NCBI GenBank assembly: GCA_902593165.1
Contig: CACJHI010000014.1
Location: forward strand, 1-39,022
Source: an uncultured Bacteroidota bacterium
GTDB taxonomy: Bacteria > Bacteroidota > Bacteroidia > Flavobacteriales > Flavobacteriaceae
Direction: 5' to 3'
Length of the DNA: 39,022 nt
In this document: positions 31,064 through 37,247 of the stretch, one piece after another
Layout: each line of letters starts with the position of its first letter
How positions within the stretch are numbered: position 1 is the first letter of the stretch
Made by a program: the position numbers and the translations under genes
The notes under the pieces: model-generated
The model's input: the letters and a program-made list of their open reading frames with translations, nothing else
Databases searched by the model: none
Told to the model about the DNA's origin: nothing

Positions 31064-32125
31064 TTACCATACTTTATTAAGAAAGTCGATAAAATTTTGA
31101 CTCATAATCTTCTCAATATCTAAATCAGAATATCCTTTTTTAGAAAGCATCAGGGGTACTTTCTGTAAATCAGCTATTGTATCTAGATCTTGTGGTGTTT
31201 GTTCTTTTCCAAATGCACCATCTAAGTCAGAACCAATTCCTACATGAGAGGAATTTCCTGATAATTGACAAATATGATCAATATTATCTATCATTTGATT
31301 TAAAGTCACACCCATCTTTTCTGGAGTTGATTCTCCTCTAATCCAATTTGGTACCATCATCCAAGCATCTAGAGGTACTCCAATAACAGCATCTCTAGAA
31401 ATTAGTTCAATAATTTGTTCATCAGAATATTGCCTATTATGATCTACAAATTTTCTACAGTTATTATGACTTGCCCATAATGGTCCATTATAGATTTCCA
31501 ATGTTTCCCAAAAGCTAATATCACACAAATGTGTAGTGTCAAGGATTAGATTTAATTCTTCAATTTTTTTTAATAACTCTTTTCCTTTAGGTCCAATTCC
31601 TCCAACTGAGTCAGTTCCATGTGCATAAACACCTGGTCCATAATGAGCAGGACCTATTGCTCTTAATCCTGATTCGTATGATTTCTCTAAATAATTCATA
31701 TTGACAATTGAATCTGCTCCTTCAAGGCTCAATATATACCCTATAGGTTTTTTAGAAATATCTTCACTCCTCCATAGTTTTAGATGCTTATTAAGCTGAT
31801 TAGTATTTTTAATTTGGACCATTTCTCCAATCTCCTCCATTGATTTATACCATGCTAGCTGGTTTTGAGTATGAGCCCAGGCTTCTTCTTGTGAATTCCA
31901 ACCAGGTAGCTCTTTATTATCGCTAACTCTGGCAATTTGAGTTGCAACACAAATTCCAATATTTCCTTTTCGCATTGCATCCAGAGATACAGTATTATTC
32001 TGTCTGTCTGGCTTGTCACTCATTCCAAATTCACTCTCTCTGATTTGCTGAACACTTTTGGTTAGATCTCTATTCCATTCTACAGCATTCATTGCTAAGT
32101 CAAGGTGAGCGTCAAGAATAAACAT
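31064..32125 (-). CDS. M19 (membrane dipeptidase)-family metallohydrolase, cytoplasmic
   Basis: 353 residues, with no signal peptide: the metal motif begins at residue 5 (DAHLDL, H7, D9). Further metal and catalytic positions: E135 in LSLEGADS, H199 in DTTHL, H220 in ASHNN and D300 in GIGSDLDGAFG. This is the complete renal-dipeptidase layout. Family members cut dipeptides with a D-residue at the C-end and other N-acyl-D-amino acids. As the last gene of the KDG operon (11 bases after the PLP enzyme gene), its likely job is removing an acyl or aminoacyl group from a D-configured hydroxy-amino acid, for example N-acetyl-D-glucosaminate. That role is inference; a plain dipeptidase is the alternative. 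Confidence 0.88.
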   Translation of the reverse strand: MFILDAHLDLAMNAVEWNRDLTKSVQQIRESEFGMSDKPDRQNNTVSLDAMRKGNIGICVATQIARVSDNKELPGWNSQEEAWAHTQNQLAWYKSMEEIGEMVQIKNTNQLNKHLKLWRSEDISKKPIGYILSLEGADSIVNMNYLEKSYESGLRAIGPAHYGPGVYAHGTDSVGGIGPKGKELLKKIEELNLILDTTHLCDISFWETLEIYNGPLWASHNNCRKFVDHNRQYSDEQIIELISRDAVIGVPLDAWMMVPNWIRGESTPEKMGVTLNQMIDNIDHICQLSGNSSHVGIGSDLDGAFGKEQTPQDLDTIADLQKVPLMLSKKGYSDLDIEKIMSQNFIDFLNKVW

Positions 32126-32136
32126 ATTTGTCTTGT

Positions 32137-33240
32137 TTAATTATTATAATCTCTAGCAGCAACTAACCACTTTCCTGTTACTTTATTATCTACAACAGTT
32201 AATACTTTTTTATACTTTGGAACTGTAGGGCAAATATGCATTGGAATAGCATAACAAATATCACCAACATTAATATTGTCTCCTTTGTCACATTTACATA
32301 CAAGGTGTTCCTCACTATGACTTATCTGTTTAAAATTTTTCATATTGAGAAGTTTCAGTCTTGGAAATTCCATTTCTGAAGCAACAGATTTATGTCCAAA
32401 ATTTAAACAAATTACATCTTCACTAGGTCTACTTATAACTGACCCAACTAAAACTCCAGCATGCAAAAAGTTTAAATCTTTAAATAACTCTCCATATCTT
32501 TCATCCCATAGCAGCGAAGTTCCTGGACTAACTTCTATATTATCTCTTTTTGAATGAATTGGGAATGTAGGAGTTCCACCAGCAACAATCTTTTTGACCT
32601 CCATCCCTAAAGATTCAATTTCCTCCTTTAATTCAAAAACTTTCTCAAACTGTAAATCACAATTTTCTTTTCTTCTATTAATATCTGAATCTCGGATATG
32701 TCCATCATAAACGTGAAGACCCTCAACAATTAAATTTGAGGACTGATAAATATCTTTATATAATAATGCAGCTTCATTATTTGGAGATATACCTGTTCTA
32801 TTGTTCCCATTATTTATATCTAACCATAGGCTAGTTTTAATATTACTATTTTTTGATGCCTCATTAAATTTTACAATTGATCCCTTATTATCTACTATTG
32901 TTGAAAATTTTGTCTCGGGATACTTACTAACTAATTCAATGAAATTATAAATTCCAATTCCAGTCATTTGCATTGCTAATAGGACATCCTTGGCATTACA
33001 TTTAGCTAGTAGTTCTGCCTCAGATAAAGTAGCACATTTAAATTTTGTGATACCATGATCTAATTGCATATTTATTATCTCTGCTATTTTATGGGTTTTT
33101 ATATGTGGCCTTAGTATATCAGTTCCTCCAGCAATCTGGATCATTAACTTAATATTTGCTTCAATTCTTTTAGGAAAAACAACAAGAGAAGGAGACAAGA
33201 TATTCTCAACGTTATTTATTCTGTACCAATCTTTATCCAT
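32137..33240 (-). CDS. Fold-type III PLP enzyme, D-threonine aldolase / D-serine dehydratase-like
   Basis: 367 residues, cytoplasmic. The N-terminal barrel has PLP-lysine motif RPHIKTHK (K48 likely), and the C-terminal domain has the zinc pair H335-x-C337 in MHICPT, as in metal-dependent D-serine dehydratases and D-threonine aldolases. These enzymes act on beta-hydroxy-D-amino acids. D-glucosaminate is such a compound (C2 amino, C3 hydroxyl, D at C2), and loss of water and ammonia gives 2-keto-3-deoxygluconate, the substrate of KdgK in the same operon. It is flanked by ridA (6 bases) and the M19 gene (11 bases). D-serine or D-threonine remain possible substrates. Confidence 0.88.
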   Translation of the reverse strand: MDKDWYRINNVENILSPSLVVFPKRIEANIKLMIQIAGGTDILRPHIKTHKIAEIINMQLDHGITKFKCATLSEAELLAKCNAKDVLLAMQMTGIGIYNFIELVSKYPETKFSTIVDNKGSIVKFNEASKNSNIKTSLWLDINNGNNRTGISPNNEAALLYKDIYQSSNLIVEGLHVYDGHIRDSDINRRKENCDLQFEKVFELKEEIESLGMEVKKIVAGGTPTFPIHSKRDNIEVSPGTSLLWDERYGELFKDLNFLHAGVLVGSVISRPSEDVICLNFGHKSVASEMEFPRLKLLNMKNFKQISHSEEHLVCKCDKGDNINVGDICYAIPMHICPTVPKYKKVLTVVDNKVTGKWLVAARDYNN

Positions 33241-33246
33241 TTGGAC

Positions 33247-33711
33247 TTATTTTAACTCAAACATTGCCTCAATTTCGACAGGGATTCCACCAGGCAGCAT
33301 CATACCCACTGCACTTCTAACACCAATACCATTGTCACTCCCAAAGATATCAGCCATCAATTCACTAAAACCATTAATTACATATGGATGTTTTTTAAAA
33401 TCAGGAGAGCAATTTACCATCCCTAAGACTTTAACAATTCTTCCAATCTTATCTAGACTACCATAATGTGTTTGGATAGTTGACAACATAGTTAATCCGA
33501 CTTGTCTTGCAGCTAATTTTCCTTGATCTTCATTAATGTCATCTCCAACTCTACCTAACATTAATGATCCATCTAAATTAACAGGTCCTTGACCTGATAC
33601 ATATAGAGACTTTCCTACAACTAGTATTGGTTTATATACTCCTGCAGGCTTGGGTGCAGGTGGTAATTTAATACCTAATTCTTCAATTATCTGTGATGGT
33701 AATTTTTTCAT
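33247..33711 (-). CDS. ridA: RidA-family imine/enamine deaminase
   Basis: 154 residues in the YjgF/RidA fold. The active-site Arg is R132 in GVRSAVGMMLPGGIPVEIE, with E148 in the closing VEIEAMF; YVSGQGPVN is the usual front loop. RidA hydrolyses enamine or imine intermediates released by PLP dehydratases to the keto acid and ammonia. Its place between gntP (1-base gap) and the PLP enzyme (6-base gap) suggests a dedicated partner. The chain is longer than the common 128 residues because of an N-terminal stretch, as in the RidA-like group sometimes found with catabolic operons. Confidence 0.9.
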   Translation of the reverse strand: MKKLPSQIIEELGIKLPPAPKPAGVYKPILVVGKSLYVSGQGPVNLDGSLMLGRVGDDINEDQGKLAARQVGLTMLSTIQTHYGSLDKIGRIVKVLGMVNCSPDFKKHPYVINGFSELMADIFGSDNGIGVRSAVGMMLPGGIPVEIEAMFELK

Positions 33712-33712
33712 T

Positions 33713-35029
33713 TTATATAAATATATTTAAGATTAATACTCCGATTAGACCAGTAATTCCAACTATTGTTTCCATAACTGTCCACGTAGAAAGAGTTTCT
33801 TTAACAGTTAAATTAAAATATTCTTTAAACAACCAAAAACCAGCATCATTAACATGAGAAAGCATTAAGCTTCCTGAGCCTATTGCTAATACCATCAATT
33901 CTGGACTAACATCTGAATTAGAAATCAATGGGAGAACTATACCTGCAGCAGTTAAACCTGCTACTGTTGCTGAACCAACGCAGACTCTTATTACTGTTGC
34001 TATCAACCATGCTAATATTAATGGTGATACTAAAGATCCTTCAAGTAAAGATCCTATATAGTCGCTGACTCCACTATCGATTAAAATTTGTTTTAATGCT
34101 CCTGCTCCTGATATAATTAAAAGTACCATTGTTATACTAGACACTGAAACAGAAATAGAGTTCATTAACTCCTTCATCTTCTTTCCCCTTGATAATCCAA
34201 GAGTATATATAGCTACTAGAACTGAAATAAGCATGGAAATAACAGGATTACCTATAAATAAAATTATTTCTTTTATTAATGATTCCGAAGGAAATACAAT
34301 TGTATATAGTGAAGAAAATATTATTAATATAACAGGTAATAATGCAGTAAATACACTTACTCCCATACTAGGCATCTGATTGTCTTTTAATATTACAGGA
34401 TTATAAAATTCTTTTAAAGGGGTTGCATTAATATTTTTAATAGTCCTTGTGAATATTGGACCAGCAATTATTATGGCGGGTATTGCAATTATAATCCCAT
34501 ATAACAGTGTTCTTCCAATGTCTGCATTAAACATTGTAGATATAGCAGTTGGGGCAGGATGGGGAGGTAAAAAGCCGTGAGTCACAGACAAAGAAGCAAG
34601 CATTGGTAATCCAACGTAAATTAATGGAAGTCCTGAAGCAGCTGCAACAGTAAAAACTAATGGAATTAAAATAACAAATCCTACCGAGTAAAACATAGGT
34701 ACACCTACTATAAAACCTGCTACTACAACTGCCCATTGAATGTTTTTTATACCAAAACTTGATATAAGGTGAGAAGTTATTCTTTGTGCCGCCCCACTAT
34801 CTGCAACAAGCTTTCCTAACATAGCACCAAAACCAAGTATTAGAACTAAAAATCCTAGTGTATCTCCTATTCCTTTCTGAATAGATTCAACTATTTTTAG
34901 CAATTCCATTCCTTGAAATAATCCAACAAATATGCATACTGTAATAAAAGAAATAAAGGCGTTAAGTTTAAATCTCGCTATTAAAATAAACAACAATATA
35001 ATTCCAGAAATTACAATGAATAAAGGCAT
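33713..35029 (-). CDS. GntP-family gluconate-type proton symporter
   Basis: 438 residues with about twelve hydrophobic segments. Family marks: GFGAMLGKLVADSGAAQRI, FLPPHPAPTAI (proline-rich loop) and IRVCVGSATVAGLTAAGI near the end. Members carry gluconate, related sugar acids or D-serine (DsdX). Third gene in the KDG operon, so a sugar acid or amino sugar acid with a carboxylate is the likely cargo; D-serine is the alternative. 11 bases after eda and one base before ridA. Confidence 0.92.
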   Translation of the reverse strand: MPLFIVISGIILLFILIARFKLNAFISFITVCIFVGLFQGMELLKIVESIQKGIGDTLGFLVLILGFGAMLGKLVADSGAAQRITSHLISSFGIKNIQWAVVVAGFIVGVPMFYSVGFVILIPLVFTVAAASGLPLIYVGLPMLASLSVTHGFLPPHPAPTAISTMFNADIGRTLLYGIIIAIPAIIIAGPIFTRTIKNINATPLKEFYNPVILKDNQMPSMGVSVFTALLPVILIIFSSLYTIVFPSESLIKEIILFIGNPVISMLISVLVAIYTLGLSRGKKMKELMNSISVSVSSITMVLLIISGAGALKQILIDSGVSDYIGSLLEGSLVSPLILAWLIATVIRVCVGSATVAGLTAAGIVLPLISNSDVSPELMVLAIGSGSLMLSHVNDAGFWLFKEYFNLTVKETLSTWTVMETIVGITGLIGVLILNIFI

Positions 35030-35040
35030 ATTATAATGAT

Positions 35041-35715
35041 TTATTTTTTTCTATTTAATGATCTAATTCTCTCAAGGGTTTTTTTAACATTCTTCTTTAA
35101 TAGATCATAATCTTTATTTTCTAAAATCTCTTTAGAAATAAGTTTTGATCCCATTCCTACACATGTTACCCCAGAATCAAACCATGATTTTAAGTTATTA
35201 AGTTCCATTGAAACACCTCCTGTTGGCATTACTGATGTCCATGGTTGAGGTCCCTTTATGCTCTTTACAAATTTGGGTCCTAATACATCACCCGGAAATA
35301 ATTTTATTAATTCACATCCAAATTCCTCCGCTGTCGCTATTTCAGTTAAAGAACTACAACCAGCTGACCATAATAGTTTTCTTCTATTGCATATACGAGC
35401 AATATCTTCTCTAAAGACAGGCGTTACAACAAAATTTGCTCCTGCTAACATATATTGTGAAGCTGCTTTAGCATCTGTAACTGACCCTACACCTAATATC
35501 ATTCCAGGCAATTCATTGATTGAATACTTAATTACCTCTGTAAAAACCTCTAGTGCAAAATCTCCCCTGTTTGTAAACTCCATTAGTCTTGCTCCTCCAT
35601 CATAACAGGCCTTGATTACAGCTTTTGAAACTGTAACATCACTATGATAAAAAAGAGGAATCATACCTGATTCTTCTATCTGATTAATTACTTCTACTCT
35701 AGAATATTGTGCCAT
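35041..35715 (-). CDS. eda: KDPG / KHG aldolase
   Basis: 224 residues, class I aldolase fold. E46 in RLMEFTNRG and the Schiff-base lysine K138 in ELIKLFPGD are the two key residues; PTGGVSMELNNLKSWFDSG is the phosphate-binding end. It splits 2-keto-3-deoxy-6-phosphogluconate to pyruvate and glyceraldehyde-3-phosphate, and often also 4-hydroxy-2-oxoglutarate. Directly after kdgK (4 bases), whose product is its substrate. Cytoplasmic. Confidence 0.93.
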   Translation of the reverse strand: MAQYSRVEVINQIEESGMIPLFYHSDVTVSKAVIKACYDGGARLMEFTNRGDFALEVFTEVIKYSINELPGMILGVGSVTDAKAASQYMLAGANFVVTPVFREDIARICNRRKLLWSAGCSSLTEIATAEEFGCELIKLFPGDVLGPKFVKSIKGPQPWTSVMPTGGVSMELNNLKSWFDSGVTCVGMGSKLISKEILENKDYDLLKKNVKKTLERIRSLNRKK

Positions 35716-35719
35716 AACT

Positions 35720-36772
35720 TTATCGATTTACGCGCCCTGAGCTGTCACCATTCATTAGTTTATTAACTTCATCTACTGTAACAAGATTGGCATCTCCTTT
35801 TATAGTGTGTTTAAGACAGGATGCAGCTACTGCAAAGTCAAGAGAGGTTTGATCATCGGTAGGATTATTTAAAATGCCATAAATTAACCCACCCATAAAA
35901 GAATCTCCAGCTCCAACACGATCAACAATATGTGTTATTTGATATTCTTTGCTTTTAAACATTTTTTTACCATCATAAAGTATCCCAGCCCATGAATTAT
36001 GAGATGCAGAAATAGACCCTCTAAGTGTAACTGCTATTTTCTCTGCTTTTGGAAATTTTTGCATCATTTCTTTACAAACTGATAAATAAGCATCTCCATT
36101 CATGTCATGACCCTGAGACCTAGCATTTAATCCCTTTGGTTTTATACCAAAATGCATTTCAGCATCTTCCTCATTACATAAAATTATGTCACAGTATGAT
36201 GTAAGCTCTGTCATAATCTCTTGACGATTCCCTTTATATTTCCAAAGTTTAGATCTGTAATTAAGATCTGTTGATATTTTGATTCCAAGCTCATTAGCAA
36301 CTTTTAAACCCTCAAGACAAACATCTGCTGCACTTTTAGATATTGCCGGAGTAATTCCTGTCCAATGAAACCAAGAGACATCTTTAAATACCTTATTCCA
36401 ATCAATCATTCCAGTTTTAATCTCAGCCATAGCTGAATTTTCCCTGTCGTATATTACTTTACTACCTCTACTAACTGCTCCTGTCTCAAGAAAATAGATT
36501 CCTAGACGACTACCACCATATATTATATGAGATGTTCCGACACCTCTTCTCCTTAGCTCCATAATAGCAGAATTTCCAATATCATTTTTAGGTATCCTAG
36601 AGACAAATTCAACAGGTATTCCATAATTTGCTAGTGAAACAGCAACATTAGCCTCGCCTCCTCCATAAAATACATCTAAGCTATTTGCTTGAGAAATACG
36701 AAGAGAGTTTGGCGAAGAGAGCCTTAACATAATCTCCCCAAATGTCACTACTTTATTTGTTTGCCTAGACAT
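35720..36772 (-). CDS. kdgK: 2-keto-3-deoxygluconate kinase (PfkB family)
   Basis: 350 residues. PfkB fold with FGEIMLRLS at the front, GGGEANVAVSLANYG (sugar site), YDRENSAM (residues 108-115, typical for KDG kinases) and the ATP/catalytic motif DRVGAGDSFMGG (D284, catalytic D290). Phosphorylates KDG to KDPG for Eda. First gene of the operon, 37 bases from a divergent secreted-protein gene. I see no clear -7 box or operator in the short upstream region. About 30-40 residues longer than E. coli KdgK, mainly by an insert near residues 210-225, as usual in Bacteroidota. Confidence 0.92.
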   Translation of the reverse strand: MSRQTNKVVTFGEIMLRLSSPNSLRISQANSLDVFYGGGEANVAVSLANYGIPVEFVSRIPKNDIGNSAIMELRRRGVGTSHIIYGGSRLGIYFLETGAVSRGSKVIYDRENSAMAEIKTGMIDWNKVFKDVSWFHWTGITPAISKSAADVCLEGLKVANELGIKISTDLNYRSKLWKYKGNRQEIMTELTSYCDIILCNEEDAEMHFGIKPKGLNARSQGHDMNGDAYLSVCKEMMQKFPKAEKIAVTLRGSISASHNSWAGILYDGKKMFKSKEYQITHIVDRVGAGDSFMGGLIYGILNNPTDDQTSLDFAVAASCLKHTIKGDANLVTVDEVNKLMNGDSSGRVNR

Positions 36773-36809: not shown

Positions 36810-37247
36810 ATGCTCTATAATCCTTATATTAGATATGTGAAAATCAATTATCTTTTTTTATTAATTTTTTTAGTATCTACGTCTGTCTTTTCCCAAAATA
36901 ACTTTGTGAGCGATGAAGAATTCAATTCTAAGATTACTTGGCTTGAACCACATGAAGTCCATTTAGAATTTAGAGATGTGCTTAGGAAAATTCCTGGTGC
37001 TAAATATGAATATGGGTGGATAGTAGATGGAATATTATATAATGCACCTCCTCAACTTTACGCAAGTCAAGTCAGATATGTAGAGGTAGTAAATAATATT
37101 CTTCAATCCAATACTTGTCAGTGTTCACTAATAATCAAGACAGCAGTAAATGAGAAAGAACTTAATAGTAGAAAAAATATTTTAAATAGGCTCAATAAAA
37201 ATAGAATAGAGAAACCTAAAAAGAAAAAAAAGAAGAAAAAGAATTAA
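36810..37247 (+). CDS. Exported protein with a poly-lysine tail
   Basis: 145 residues. With the ATG at 36810 the signal peptide has a long front; the GTG at 36837 would give a normal signal (KINYLFLLIFLV... cleavage near VFSQ), so the true start may be GTG. The mature part has no motif that I know; SDEEFNSKITWLEPHEVHLEFRDV looks like the front of a small alpha/beta domain, and CQC in the middle may bind metal or form a disulfide. The last residues are a run of eight Lys after KPK. A poly-lysine end would bind acidic surfaces or nucleic acids. Confidence 0.55.
   Translation: MLYNPYIRYVKINYLFLLIFLVSTSVFSQNNFVSDEEFNSKITWLEPHEVHLEFRDVLRKIPGAKYEYGWIVDGILYNAPPQLYASQVRYVEVVNNILQSNTCQCSLIIKTAVNEKELNSRKNILNRLNKNRIEKPKKKKKKKKN

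What the first reader, a model, noticed from the sequence alone, without database searches (positions are those of the whole stretch)
31064..36772. Six-gene operon fits a complete catabolic route for oxidised amino sugars (D-glucosaminate / N-acetyl-D-glucosaminate) in a flavobacterium
Seen: kdgK, eda, gntP, ridA, a fold-III PLP enzyme with K48 and zinc pair H335/C337, and an M19 metallohydrolase are packed with gaps of 1-11 bases on one strand. Known: KdgK and Eda take 2-keto-3-deoxygluconate to pyruvate and glyceraldehyde-3-phosphate; D-serine-dehydratase-like enzymes act on beta-hydroxy-D-amino acids; RidA finishes their reaction; GntP proteins carry sugar acids or D-serine. Inference: D-glucosaminate is a beta-hydroxy-D-amino acid whose deamination gives exactly KDG, so all six genes join one pathway. 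From memory (not checked), a marine Pseudoalteromonas degrades C1-oxidised chitin by D-amino-acid-like steps ending in KDPG and was discussed for Gammaproteobacteria; this would be a flavobacterial version.
Basis: partly seen in the sequence, partly recalled or inferred. Interest (0 to 1): 0.82.

Follow-up and report, generated by a model that had tools for sequence, protein, structure and literature searches.

The report
Oxidised amino-sugar catabolism operon, flavobacteria
A six-gene operon in a small-genome, probably marine bacterium looks like a self-contained route for eating oxidised chitin sugar, assembled from different enzymes than the one known route of this kind.

Summary
The six genes are real and packed as described: kdgK-eda-gntP-ridA-PLP enzyme-M19, gaps 4, 11, 1, 6, 11 bases. 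The oxidised amino-sugar reading gains comparative support, with corrections.
(1) It is no orthologous copy of the gammaproteobacterial ong cluster: OngC is a separate clade, about 20% identical to the PLP enzyme; OngB is another family than M19; transporters differ.
(2) The core is gntP-ridA-PLP-M19. kdgK+eda joined it from three gene lineages at three positions. One Flavobacteriaceae genus (g17) adds GH20 in 12 of 12 loci and SusC/SusD in 7; Aquimarina adds GH20, a lactonase and GH18.
(3) No LPMO in 43 genomes and no GH18 in 11 of the window's genus, suggesting a scavenger.
The PLP enzyme has the dehydratase H-x-C motif, not the aldolases' H-x-D. M19 as GlcNAc1A deacetylase is inferred. Against: two genus members have the core but no kdgK/eda found, and the genus has an unlinked OngB-like gene. 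No activity was tested.

The parts
35720..36772 (-). kdgK: PfkB-family sugar kinase, predicted 2-keto-3-deoxygluconate (KDG) kinase
   Evidence: PF00294 1.1e-31; best NCBIfam hit is the kinase half of NF041633, below its cut-off; 73-75% identical to five KdgKs that sit away from the cluster in other Flavobacteriaceae genomes, with which it groups
35041..35715 (-). eda: KDPG/KHG aldolase
   Evidence: PF01081 3e-31; NCBIfam PRK07114 356 bits, over its cut-off of 275
33713..35029 (-). gntP: GntP-family permease, predicted importer of the sugar acid
   Evidence: PF02447 1.6e-164; TIGR00791 574 bits, over its cut-off
33247..33711 (-). ridA-like protein, predicted enamine/imine deaminase helper
   Evidence: PF14588 3.3e-12, over the cut-off; PF01042 just under its cut-off
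32137..33240 (-). fold-III PLP enzyme of the D-serine dehydratase / D-threonine aldolase superfamily, predicted D-glucosaminate deaminase giving KDG
   Evidence: PF01168 + PF14031; K48, H335, C337 invariant in 37 sequences; H-x-C metal motif as in chicken D-serine dehydratase, against H-x-D in four aldolases; AlphaFold2 model pLDDT 93.6, best PDB match 4v15, TM 0.90
31064..32125 (-). M19-family metallohydrolase (no signal peptide evident by eye), predicted N-acyl-D-amino-sugar-acid hydrolase (GlcNAc1A deacetylase)
   Evidence: PF01244 8.2e-45; H7, D9, E135, H199, H220, D300 and R231 invariant in 38 sequences (roles recalled); AlphaFold2 model pLDDT 93.0, closest to solved M19 dipeptidases; close relatives found only in PLP-positive genomes of the order sample

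Best explanation
The operon takes up an oxidised amino sugar, most likely N-acetyl-D-glucosaminate (GlcNAc1A) and/or D-glucosaminate (GlcN1A), through GntP. The M19 hydrolase removes the acyl group from the D-amino-acid-like GlcNAc1A in the cytoplasm. The Zn/PLP enzyme eliminates the beta-hydroxyl of GlcN1A to an enamine, RidA helps hydrolyse the enamine/imine to KDG and ammonia, KdgK phosphorylates KDG, and Eda splits KDPG into pyruvate and glyceraldehyde-3-phosphate. Shown here: the gene content, the families, the conserved residues, the linkage, and the separate sources of kdgK/eda. Inferred: every substrate, and above all the M19 role. The pathway logic matches the ong pathway of Pseudoalteromonas, but the genes are not orthologous. 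In the window's genus it would be a scavenging route, because no LPMO and no GH18 chitinase was found in its (incomplete) genomes.
For: (a) kdgK+eda attach to the gntP-ridA-PLP-M19 core in three arrangements: upstream of gntP (window genus), between ridA and PLP (g17), after M19 (Aquimarina, L114). Trees place the three sets in different lineages. (b) In the window's genus kdgK occurs in 11 of 25 genomes: 9 in the full operon, and 2 on contigs that end inside it. (c) In g17, 12 of 12 clusters hold GH20 and a DeoR-type regulator, and 7 of 12 hold SusC/SusD, exactly those with kdgK/eda (Pfam run on L046 and L047 only). Aquimarina L114 has GH20, an SMP-30-type lactonase and GH18 on the same strand. 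(d) The metal motif is H-x-C, as in D-serine dehydratase and in three OngC-type proteins, not H-x-D as in four aldolases. (e) No OngB homologue was found at E<=1e-5 in 12 of 12 g17 genomes, leaving M19 as the only N-deacylase candidate inside their clusters (other deacetylase families not searched). (f) The close M19 relative occurs in 16 of 19 PLP-positive and 0 of 376 PLP-negative genomes. (g) In the ong pathway a PLP enzyme of the same superfamily deaminates GlcN1A to KDG, and the RidA and KdgK genes are needed for growth on GlcNAc1A (PMC9537276, sections 8 and 13 and passages).
Against: G012 and G021 carry the core but no kdgK or eda was found in them (81% and 85% complete). Most core loci outside the three groups have no local kdgK/eda: of 80 named loci, only 3 window-genus loci and L114 have both, and L117 has eda alone; of 25 further phylum loci none has either. 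Eight Flavobacteriaceae genomes with the PLP gene but no local kdgK/eda do carry an aldolase elsewhere; kdgK was seen beside a distant eda in the loci fetched for seven of them (G133, G310, G315, G148, G182, G386, G040), and G235 was not fetched. The core itself is not constant: of the 25 phylum loci 24 have PLP, 15 M19, 12 RidA and 5 GntP, so it may serve other substrates. The PLP enzyme scores closer to D-threonine aldolases and 3-hydroxy-D-aspartate aldolase than to D-serine dehydratase overall. OngC also deaminates D-serine and D-threonine (PMC9537276 section 13), so the chemistry does not fix the substrate. All 11 PLP-positive genomes of the window's genus have an OngB-family gene elsewhere (N-terminal piece 28-36% identical; only a fragment in G001), which could be the deacetylase instead of M19. 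No LPMO was found in 43 genomes.
Confidence: 0.6

Rival explanations
1. The core gntP-ridA-PLP-M19 degrades D-serine/D-threonine or other beta-hydroxy-D-amino acids released by M19 from L-Xaa-D-Xaa dipeptides. kdgK-eda is a neighbouring uronate/gluconate module with no metabolic link.
For: Solved M19 relatives are named dipeptidases. GntP also matches the D-serine transporter DsdX model, far below its cut-off. The core occurs widely without local kdgK/eda. The window genus's kdgK/eda group with genes found away from the cluster in other Flavobacteriaceae. G012 and G021 have the core and no kdgK/eda was found.
Against: kdgK/eda of three lineages joined the same core at three positions, and in g17 and L114 GH20 is there too. 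Pyruvate from D-serine needs neither gene.
Confidence: 0.22
2. The route serves another oxidised or acidic amino sugar, for example D-galactosaminate or a longer N-acyl or aminoacyl amino-sugar acid. M19 cleaves the amide and the product enters through KDG or KDGal.
For: KdgK also matches models of bifunctional KDG/KDGal kinases, below their cut-offs. An ong-like cluster on a Klebsiella plasmid is annotated with KDGal kinase and aldolase. M19 dipeptidases cleave aminoacyl amides (family knowledge).
Against: GH20 and GH18 neighbours in relatives point to chitin-type glycans, though GH20 is not specific to chitin.
Confidence: 0.12
3. The deacetylation step is done by a separate D-aminoacylase-family protein elsewhere in the window's genome. 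The operon's true substrate is free D-glucosaminate and M19 has another job.
For: An OngB-like match in an open frame of 543 aa lies at G000:C9:7165-8697, and such matches were found in all 11 PLP-positive genus genomes tested.
Against: It is not linked to the operon, and 12 of 12 g17 genomes with the related cluster gave no match. M19 tracks PLP closely in the order sample.
Confidence: 0.06

Closest known systems
ong cluster / oxidative chitin utilisation pathway of Pseudoalteromonas prydzensis (PMC9537276)
   Same: Same set of functional slots: importer, metal-dependent N-deacylase candidate, fold-III PLP deaminase with an H-x-C metal pair, RidA protein, KDG kinase, and (in Vibrio, Klebsiella, Serratia per the paper) KDPG aldolase. 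In g17 and Aquimarina relatives also GH20.
   Different: PLP enzyme about 20% identical to OngC and in another clade. M19 instead of the D-aminoacylase OngB. GntP instead of SSS OngIT. No RpiR regulator. No LPMO in 43 genomes.
GlcNAc1A deacetylase OngB (PMC12017989, abstract and passages read)
   Same: Proposed reaction: metal-dependent deacetylation of an N-acetyl-D-amino-acid-like sugar acid.
   Different: M19 gives no meaningful sequence match to two OngB-type proteins. A search of the paper's text found no 'M19' and no 'Bacteroid'.
Peptidase M19 / renal-type dipeptidases (3neh, 3ly0, 3id7, 1itq)
   Same: Family, fold, and conserved site residues.
   Different: 16-23% identity to the 20 M19-type fold matches. 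The window's protein belongs to a group 51-95% identical to it in 37 relatives from several phyla.
D-serine dehydratase (3anu) and D-threonine aldolase (4v15)
   Same: Superfamily and fold; PLP lysine in a PHxK-type motif.
   Different: Overall closest to the aldolases, but it has the dehydratase H-x-C metal pair.
[quoted passage not shown] mentioned in passages of PMC12343721)
   Same: Ends in KDPG from an oxidised amino sugar.
   Different: It acts on the phosphorylated sugar with another PLP enzyme (recalled). None of the six genes was named as such.

Membership tests
ong cluster (oxidative chitin utilisation) | OngB-type D-aminoacylase-family deacetylase in the cluster | tested here: not met
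   M19 protein in its place; no match to one D-aminoacylase reference at E<=1e-6 in any of 136 mapped loci
ong cluster (oxidative chitin utilisation) | OngC orthologue | tested here: not met
   same superfamily and H-x-C motif, but about 20% identity and a separate 100/100 clade
ong cluster (oxidative chitin utilisation) | RidA-family protein (OngD) | tested here: inconclusive
   RidA-like family present, PF14588, but only a marginal match to the Klebsiella OngD (29% over 69 aa, E 0.007) and none to the Pseudoalteromonas one
ong cluster (oxidative chitin utilisation) | KDG kinase, with KDPG aldolase in some clusters | tested here: met
   24% identical to the Pseudoalteromonas cluster's kinase
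ong cluster (oxidative chitin utilisation) | SSS transporter OngIT and RpiR regulator OngR | tested here: not met
   GntP instead and no regulator among the six genes; DeoR type in g17
ong cluster (oxidative chitin utilisation) | GH20 OngA in the cluster | tested here: not met
   absent from the window's cluster (a GH20 lies elsewhere, G000:C4); present in 12 of 12 g17 clusters and in L114
ong cluster (oxidative chitin utilisation) | LPMO in the genome | tested here: not met
   0 of 43 genomes, many incomplete; 1 of 395 Bacteroidota genomes
ong cluster (oxidative chitin utilisation) | GlcNAc1A converted to KDPG, acetate and ammonia | not testable with these tools
   needs enzyme assays
D-threonine aldolase | H-x-D metal pair near the C terminus | tested here: not met
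   PMHICPT in the window against H-x-D in four solved aldolases
D-serine dehydratase-type PLP enzymes | PF14031 domain, PLP lysine, H-x-C metal pair | tested here: met
D-serine dehydratase-type PLP enzymes | elimination of ammonia from a beta-hydroxy-D-amino acid | not testable with these tools
   needs enzyme assays
Peptidase M19 | PF01244 domain with intact metal site | tested here: met
   (roles of the residues recalled)
Peptidase M19 | dipeptidase activity | not testable with these tools
   needs enzyme assays

The most novel reading that the evidence does not exclude
Nature assembled the oxidised-chitin monomer pathway at least twice, from non-orthologous or different-family parts at the steps compared. 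The Bacteroidota version uses a 'dipeptidase' (M19) as a sugar-acid deacetylase and a separate PLP deaminase lineage. It is carried by organisms in which no LPMO was found, including (probably marine) flavobacteria with genome assemblies of about 0.8-1.3 Mb (54-95% complete), which would live on oxidised amino sugars released by other microbes.
Probability: 0.45. Interest if true: 0.78.

Novelty: new variant of a known kind. Interest (0 to 1): 0.62.

Why it matters
If right, the fate of C1-oxidised chitin is not limited to LPMO-bearing Gammaproteobacteria. A widespread Bacteroidota gene set would scavenge the products, making oxidised chitin a shared good between species. It would give a substrate to an unassigned M19 subgroup (annotated 'membrane dipeptidase' in the two annotated plasmids seen) and to its D-TA-type PLP partner. 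It would also be a clear case of one pathway assembled separately from different families. The g17 and Aquimarina clusters show relatives in which it can be tested directly.

Tried and rejected
Considered and set aside: (1) the idea that the operon is a transferred ong cluster. Rejected after finding ong-type clusters in Pseudoalteromonas, Vibrio and Klebsiella records and comparing them. (2) A D-threonine aldolase function. Disfavoured by the H-x-C motif. (3) LPMO coupling. Rejected for these genomes. (4) Hits at first taken for possible ong clusters: the V. campbellii hit shows no ong-like neighbours among its unannotated frames, and the CF6-2 hit is another cluster. (5) In one search two tree rows (Cupriavidus, Variovorax) were chosen as the longest frame and sat on very long branches; they were dropped and the tree was rebuilt without them. 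(6) GH20 as a linked marker inside the window's genus: found in 8 of 11 PLP-positive and 8 of 14 other genomes, so uninformative there. (7) SSF transporters were found in all 26 genomes tested, so uninformative. (8) Promoter/terminator scan: 32 promoter-like sites against 33.7 expected and 4 terminator-like against 2.4, so uninformative. (9) In the maps L166, L169, L177 and L100 gave no PLP frame by my ORF filter although a match lies there; they stay in the denominators. A second PLP gene in G362 (L048) and the distant one in G331 (L049) are counted with the 7 other loci of the order, not with g17.

Not done: direct comparison with the P. prydzensis proteins themselves (only related ong clusters were at hand); docking; deacetylase families other than OngB's; any activity test. 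Related genomes are not independent, so the Fisher values are descriptive.


Full report
Observation. K48, H335 and C337 of the PLP enzyme are invariant in 37 aligned sequences, the window's included. The window is contig C14 of an incomplete genome (1.23 Mb, 75% complete).

Conservation in the genus. Of 25 genus genomes (54-95% complete), 11 carry the PLP enzyme. Ten loci were fetched besides the window. All 11 have gntP-ridA-PLP-M19 in that order (M19 in two pieces with unread letters in L039), and 9 of 11 also have kdgK and eda upstream. kdgK is found in 11 of the 25 genomes: nine are the full operons; the other two, G010 and G003, lie on contigs that end inside the operon (G010 breaks off in ridA; G003 at the end of kdgK). 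eda is found in 10 of the 25, nine in the full operons plus G010. In this genus the two genes were therefore seen only in this operon. Against the reading, G012 and G021 (81% and 85% complete) have the core, but no kdgK or eda was found in them.

Wider conservation. In a sample of 395 genomes of the order, 19 have a PLP match at E<=1e-30 and 16 have an M19 match at E<=1e-60; all 16 are among the 19 (Fisher value, genomes not independent, 12 of them one genus). In one of the 16 (G315) the M19 gene is far from the PLP gene. In 7 of 12 the cluster also has SusC, SusD, kdgK and eda, always together (Pfam on L046 and L047). The other 7 loci of the order (5 genomes besides G362's second PLP gene and G331) have M19 in 2, RidA in 3, GntP in 3 and neither kdgK nor eda. 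Of 80 named loci (the best 80 of more), 77 gave a PLP frame in my map, 58 an M19, 67 a RidA, 50 a GntP, 4 a kdgK, 5 an eda and 0 a D-aminoacylase. In Aquimarina megaterium (L114) the same strand carries GH20, an SMP-30/gluconolactonase-type protein, gntP, ridA, PLP, M19, kdgK, eda and a GH18 protein, with two other frames between. In 25 further phylum loci PLP was mapped in 24, M19 in 15, RidA in 12, GntP in 5, kdgK and eda in none. The core is thus wider than the full route and may serve other substrates elsewhere.

Separate sources of kdgK and eda. Trees of 38 aldolases and 34 kinases put the window-genus genes among genes found away from the cluster in other Flavobacteriaceae (aldolase clade of 23 rows, 97/95; the kinases of the window genus do not form one clade of their own and mix with five such genes, 82/93). 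The g17 cluster genes form a 100/100 clade apart in both trees, and the Aquimarina genes lie apart from both. Some long branches meet, as the tool warns, so the exact joins are unsure. The three sets also sit at three different places relative to the core. Repeated joining of KDG-handling genes to one deaminase core is the strongest sign that the deaminase makes KDG. Eight Flavobacteriaceae genomes with the PLP gene but without local kdgK/eda have an aldolase elsewhere, and in seven of them kdgK was seen beside one.

Enzyme features. Profile alignments with solved structures show H-x-D in four aldolases and H-x-C in chicken D-serine dehydratase; the window has PMHICPT. Three OngC-type proteins also have H-x-C. 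Overall, however, the profile scores the aldolases higher than the dehydratase. The M19 model (pLDDT 93.0) is closest to solved M19 dipeptidases. E135, H199, H220 and D300 align with conserved residues of these, and H7-x-D9 is seen in the sequence; their roles as metal ligands, and that of R231 in binding the carboxylate of the D-residue, are recalled. M19 dipeptidases take substrates whose C-terminal residue is a D-amino acid (recalled), and GlcNAc1A is an N-acyl-D-amino acid, so deacetylation by an M19 enzyme is chemically reasonable but unproven.

Comparison with the known pathway. The paper (PMC9537276; outline, passages and sections 8, 13 and 17 read) shows that OngB deacetylates GlcNAc1A, OngC deaminates GlcN1A to KDG and also acts on D-serine and D-threonine, KdgK phosphorylates KDG, and the RidA gene ongD is needed for growth. 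In its survey all 298 marine strains with cluster and LPMO were Gammaproteobacteria, and its Figure 6 legend names one Betaproteobacterium as the only exception among strains with the complete pathway. I located ong-type clusters in Pseudoalteromonas shioyasakiensis (L215: deaminase, RpiR, D-aminoacylase, RidA, an unlisted frame, sugar kinase, GH20), Vibrio sp. (L216; families) and a Klebsiella plasmid (L217). Their OngC-type proteins form a 100/100 clade separate from the 100/100 clade that holds the window's enzyme (26 rows). Identities to the window's proteins are about 20% (PLP) and 24% (KdgK against the Pseudoalteromonas kinase), with no meaningful match for M19 against OngB, and for RidA a marginal match to the Klebsiella OngD only. 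OngB homologues at E<=1e-5 were found in 0 of 12 g17 genomes and not in G310. They were found in 11 of 11 PLP-positive window-genus genomes (a fragment in G001), unlinked to the operon, in G133, and weakly in G315.

Ecology. LPMO_10 was found in 0 of 43 genomes of interest and in 1 of 395 Bacteroidota genomes; a 2016 paper states that none had been discovered in Bacteroidetes (PMC5127042, passages read). GH18 was found in 0 of 11 window-genus genomes, 12 of 12 g17 genomes, G133 and G315, and not in G310. The window's organism would therefore use oxidised monomers made by others; g17 and Aquimarina would use them together with their own chitinases. A GH20 does occur elsewhere in the window's genome.

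Literature. Eight full-text searches listed no paper whose title or abstract start describes this cluster, an M19 GlcNAc1A deacetylase or an oxidised-chitin pathway in Bacteroidota. Three of them listed only part of their hits (20 of 37, 15 of 84, 15 of 75), and subscription journals and preprints are not covered. PMC12017989 (abstract and passages) and PMC10535946 (passages) speak of the gammaproteobacterial pathway.

Verdict. Observation confirmed. The pathway reading is the best available at 0.6, with M19 as deacetylase the least certain step. It is a separately assembled variant of a known kind of pathway, not a member of the ong family.

Noticed in passing
L036:2205-4054, L037:13887-15736, L038:14311-16145, L040:2850-4673, L192:5058-6895: In one part of the genus two genes that look like a gluconokinase and a 6-phosphogluconate dehydrogenase (by eye) lie just upstream of the operon. 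A fused gluconokinase-6PGDH lies near the core in L117.
   Followed up: partly
L036:7058-7438, L038:11391-11771, L039:6711-7091, L040:6448-6828, L192:1683-2063: A 126-aa membrane-protein-like gene sits between eda and gntP in part of the genus but not in the window.
   Followed up: no
L131, L139, L152, L153, L155, L156 (directly after M19): A GDSL/SGNH hydrolase follows M19 in 6 of 80 named loci; its role is unknown, possibly a deacylase of the same substrate.
   Followed up: no
L076, L090: In other Bacteroidota the PLP and M19 genes lie in different clusters, with genes that look (by eye) like a class-III aminotransferase, an NAD-binding dehydrogenase and a neutral-ceramidase-like protein, so the core may serve more than one substrate.
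   Followed up: no
L217:3748-10152: An ong-like cluster on a Klebsiella plasmid is annotated with KDGal kinase and KDPGal aldolase rather than KdgK/KdgA, which may mean a galactosaminate variant or mere annotation.
   Followed up: no
L216:16849-17877 and L114:2415-3287: A sugar-lactonase-type gene of a different family each time (PF10282 and PF08450) lies beside the GH20 gene in the Vibrio ong cluster and in the Aquimarina cluster, a further parallel.
   Followed up: partly
window 36810-37247 (+): A fast-changing small protein with a poly-lysine tail lies next to the operon; L032 has two copies (52 and 76% identity).
   Followed up: no
L225 (G055:C1:2317637-2318158): The only LPMO_10 match among 395 Bacteroidota genomes; it is in the same genus (g5) as G331, which has a distant PLP homologue.
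   Followed up: no
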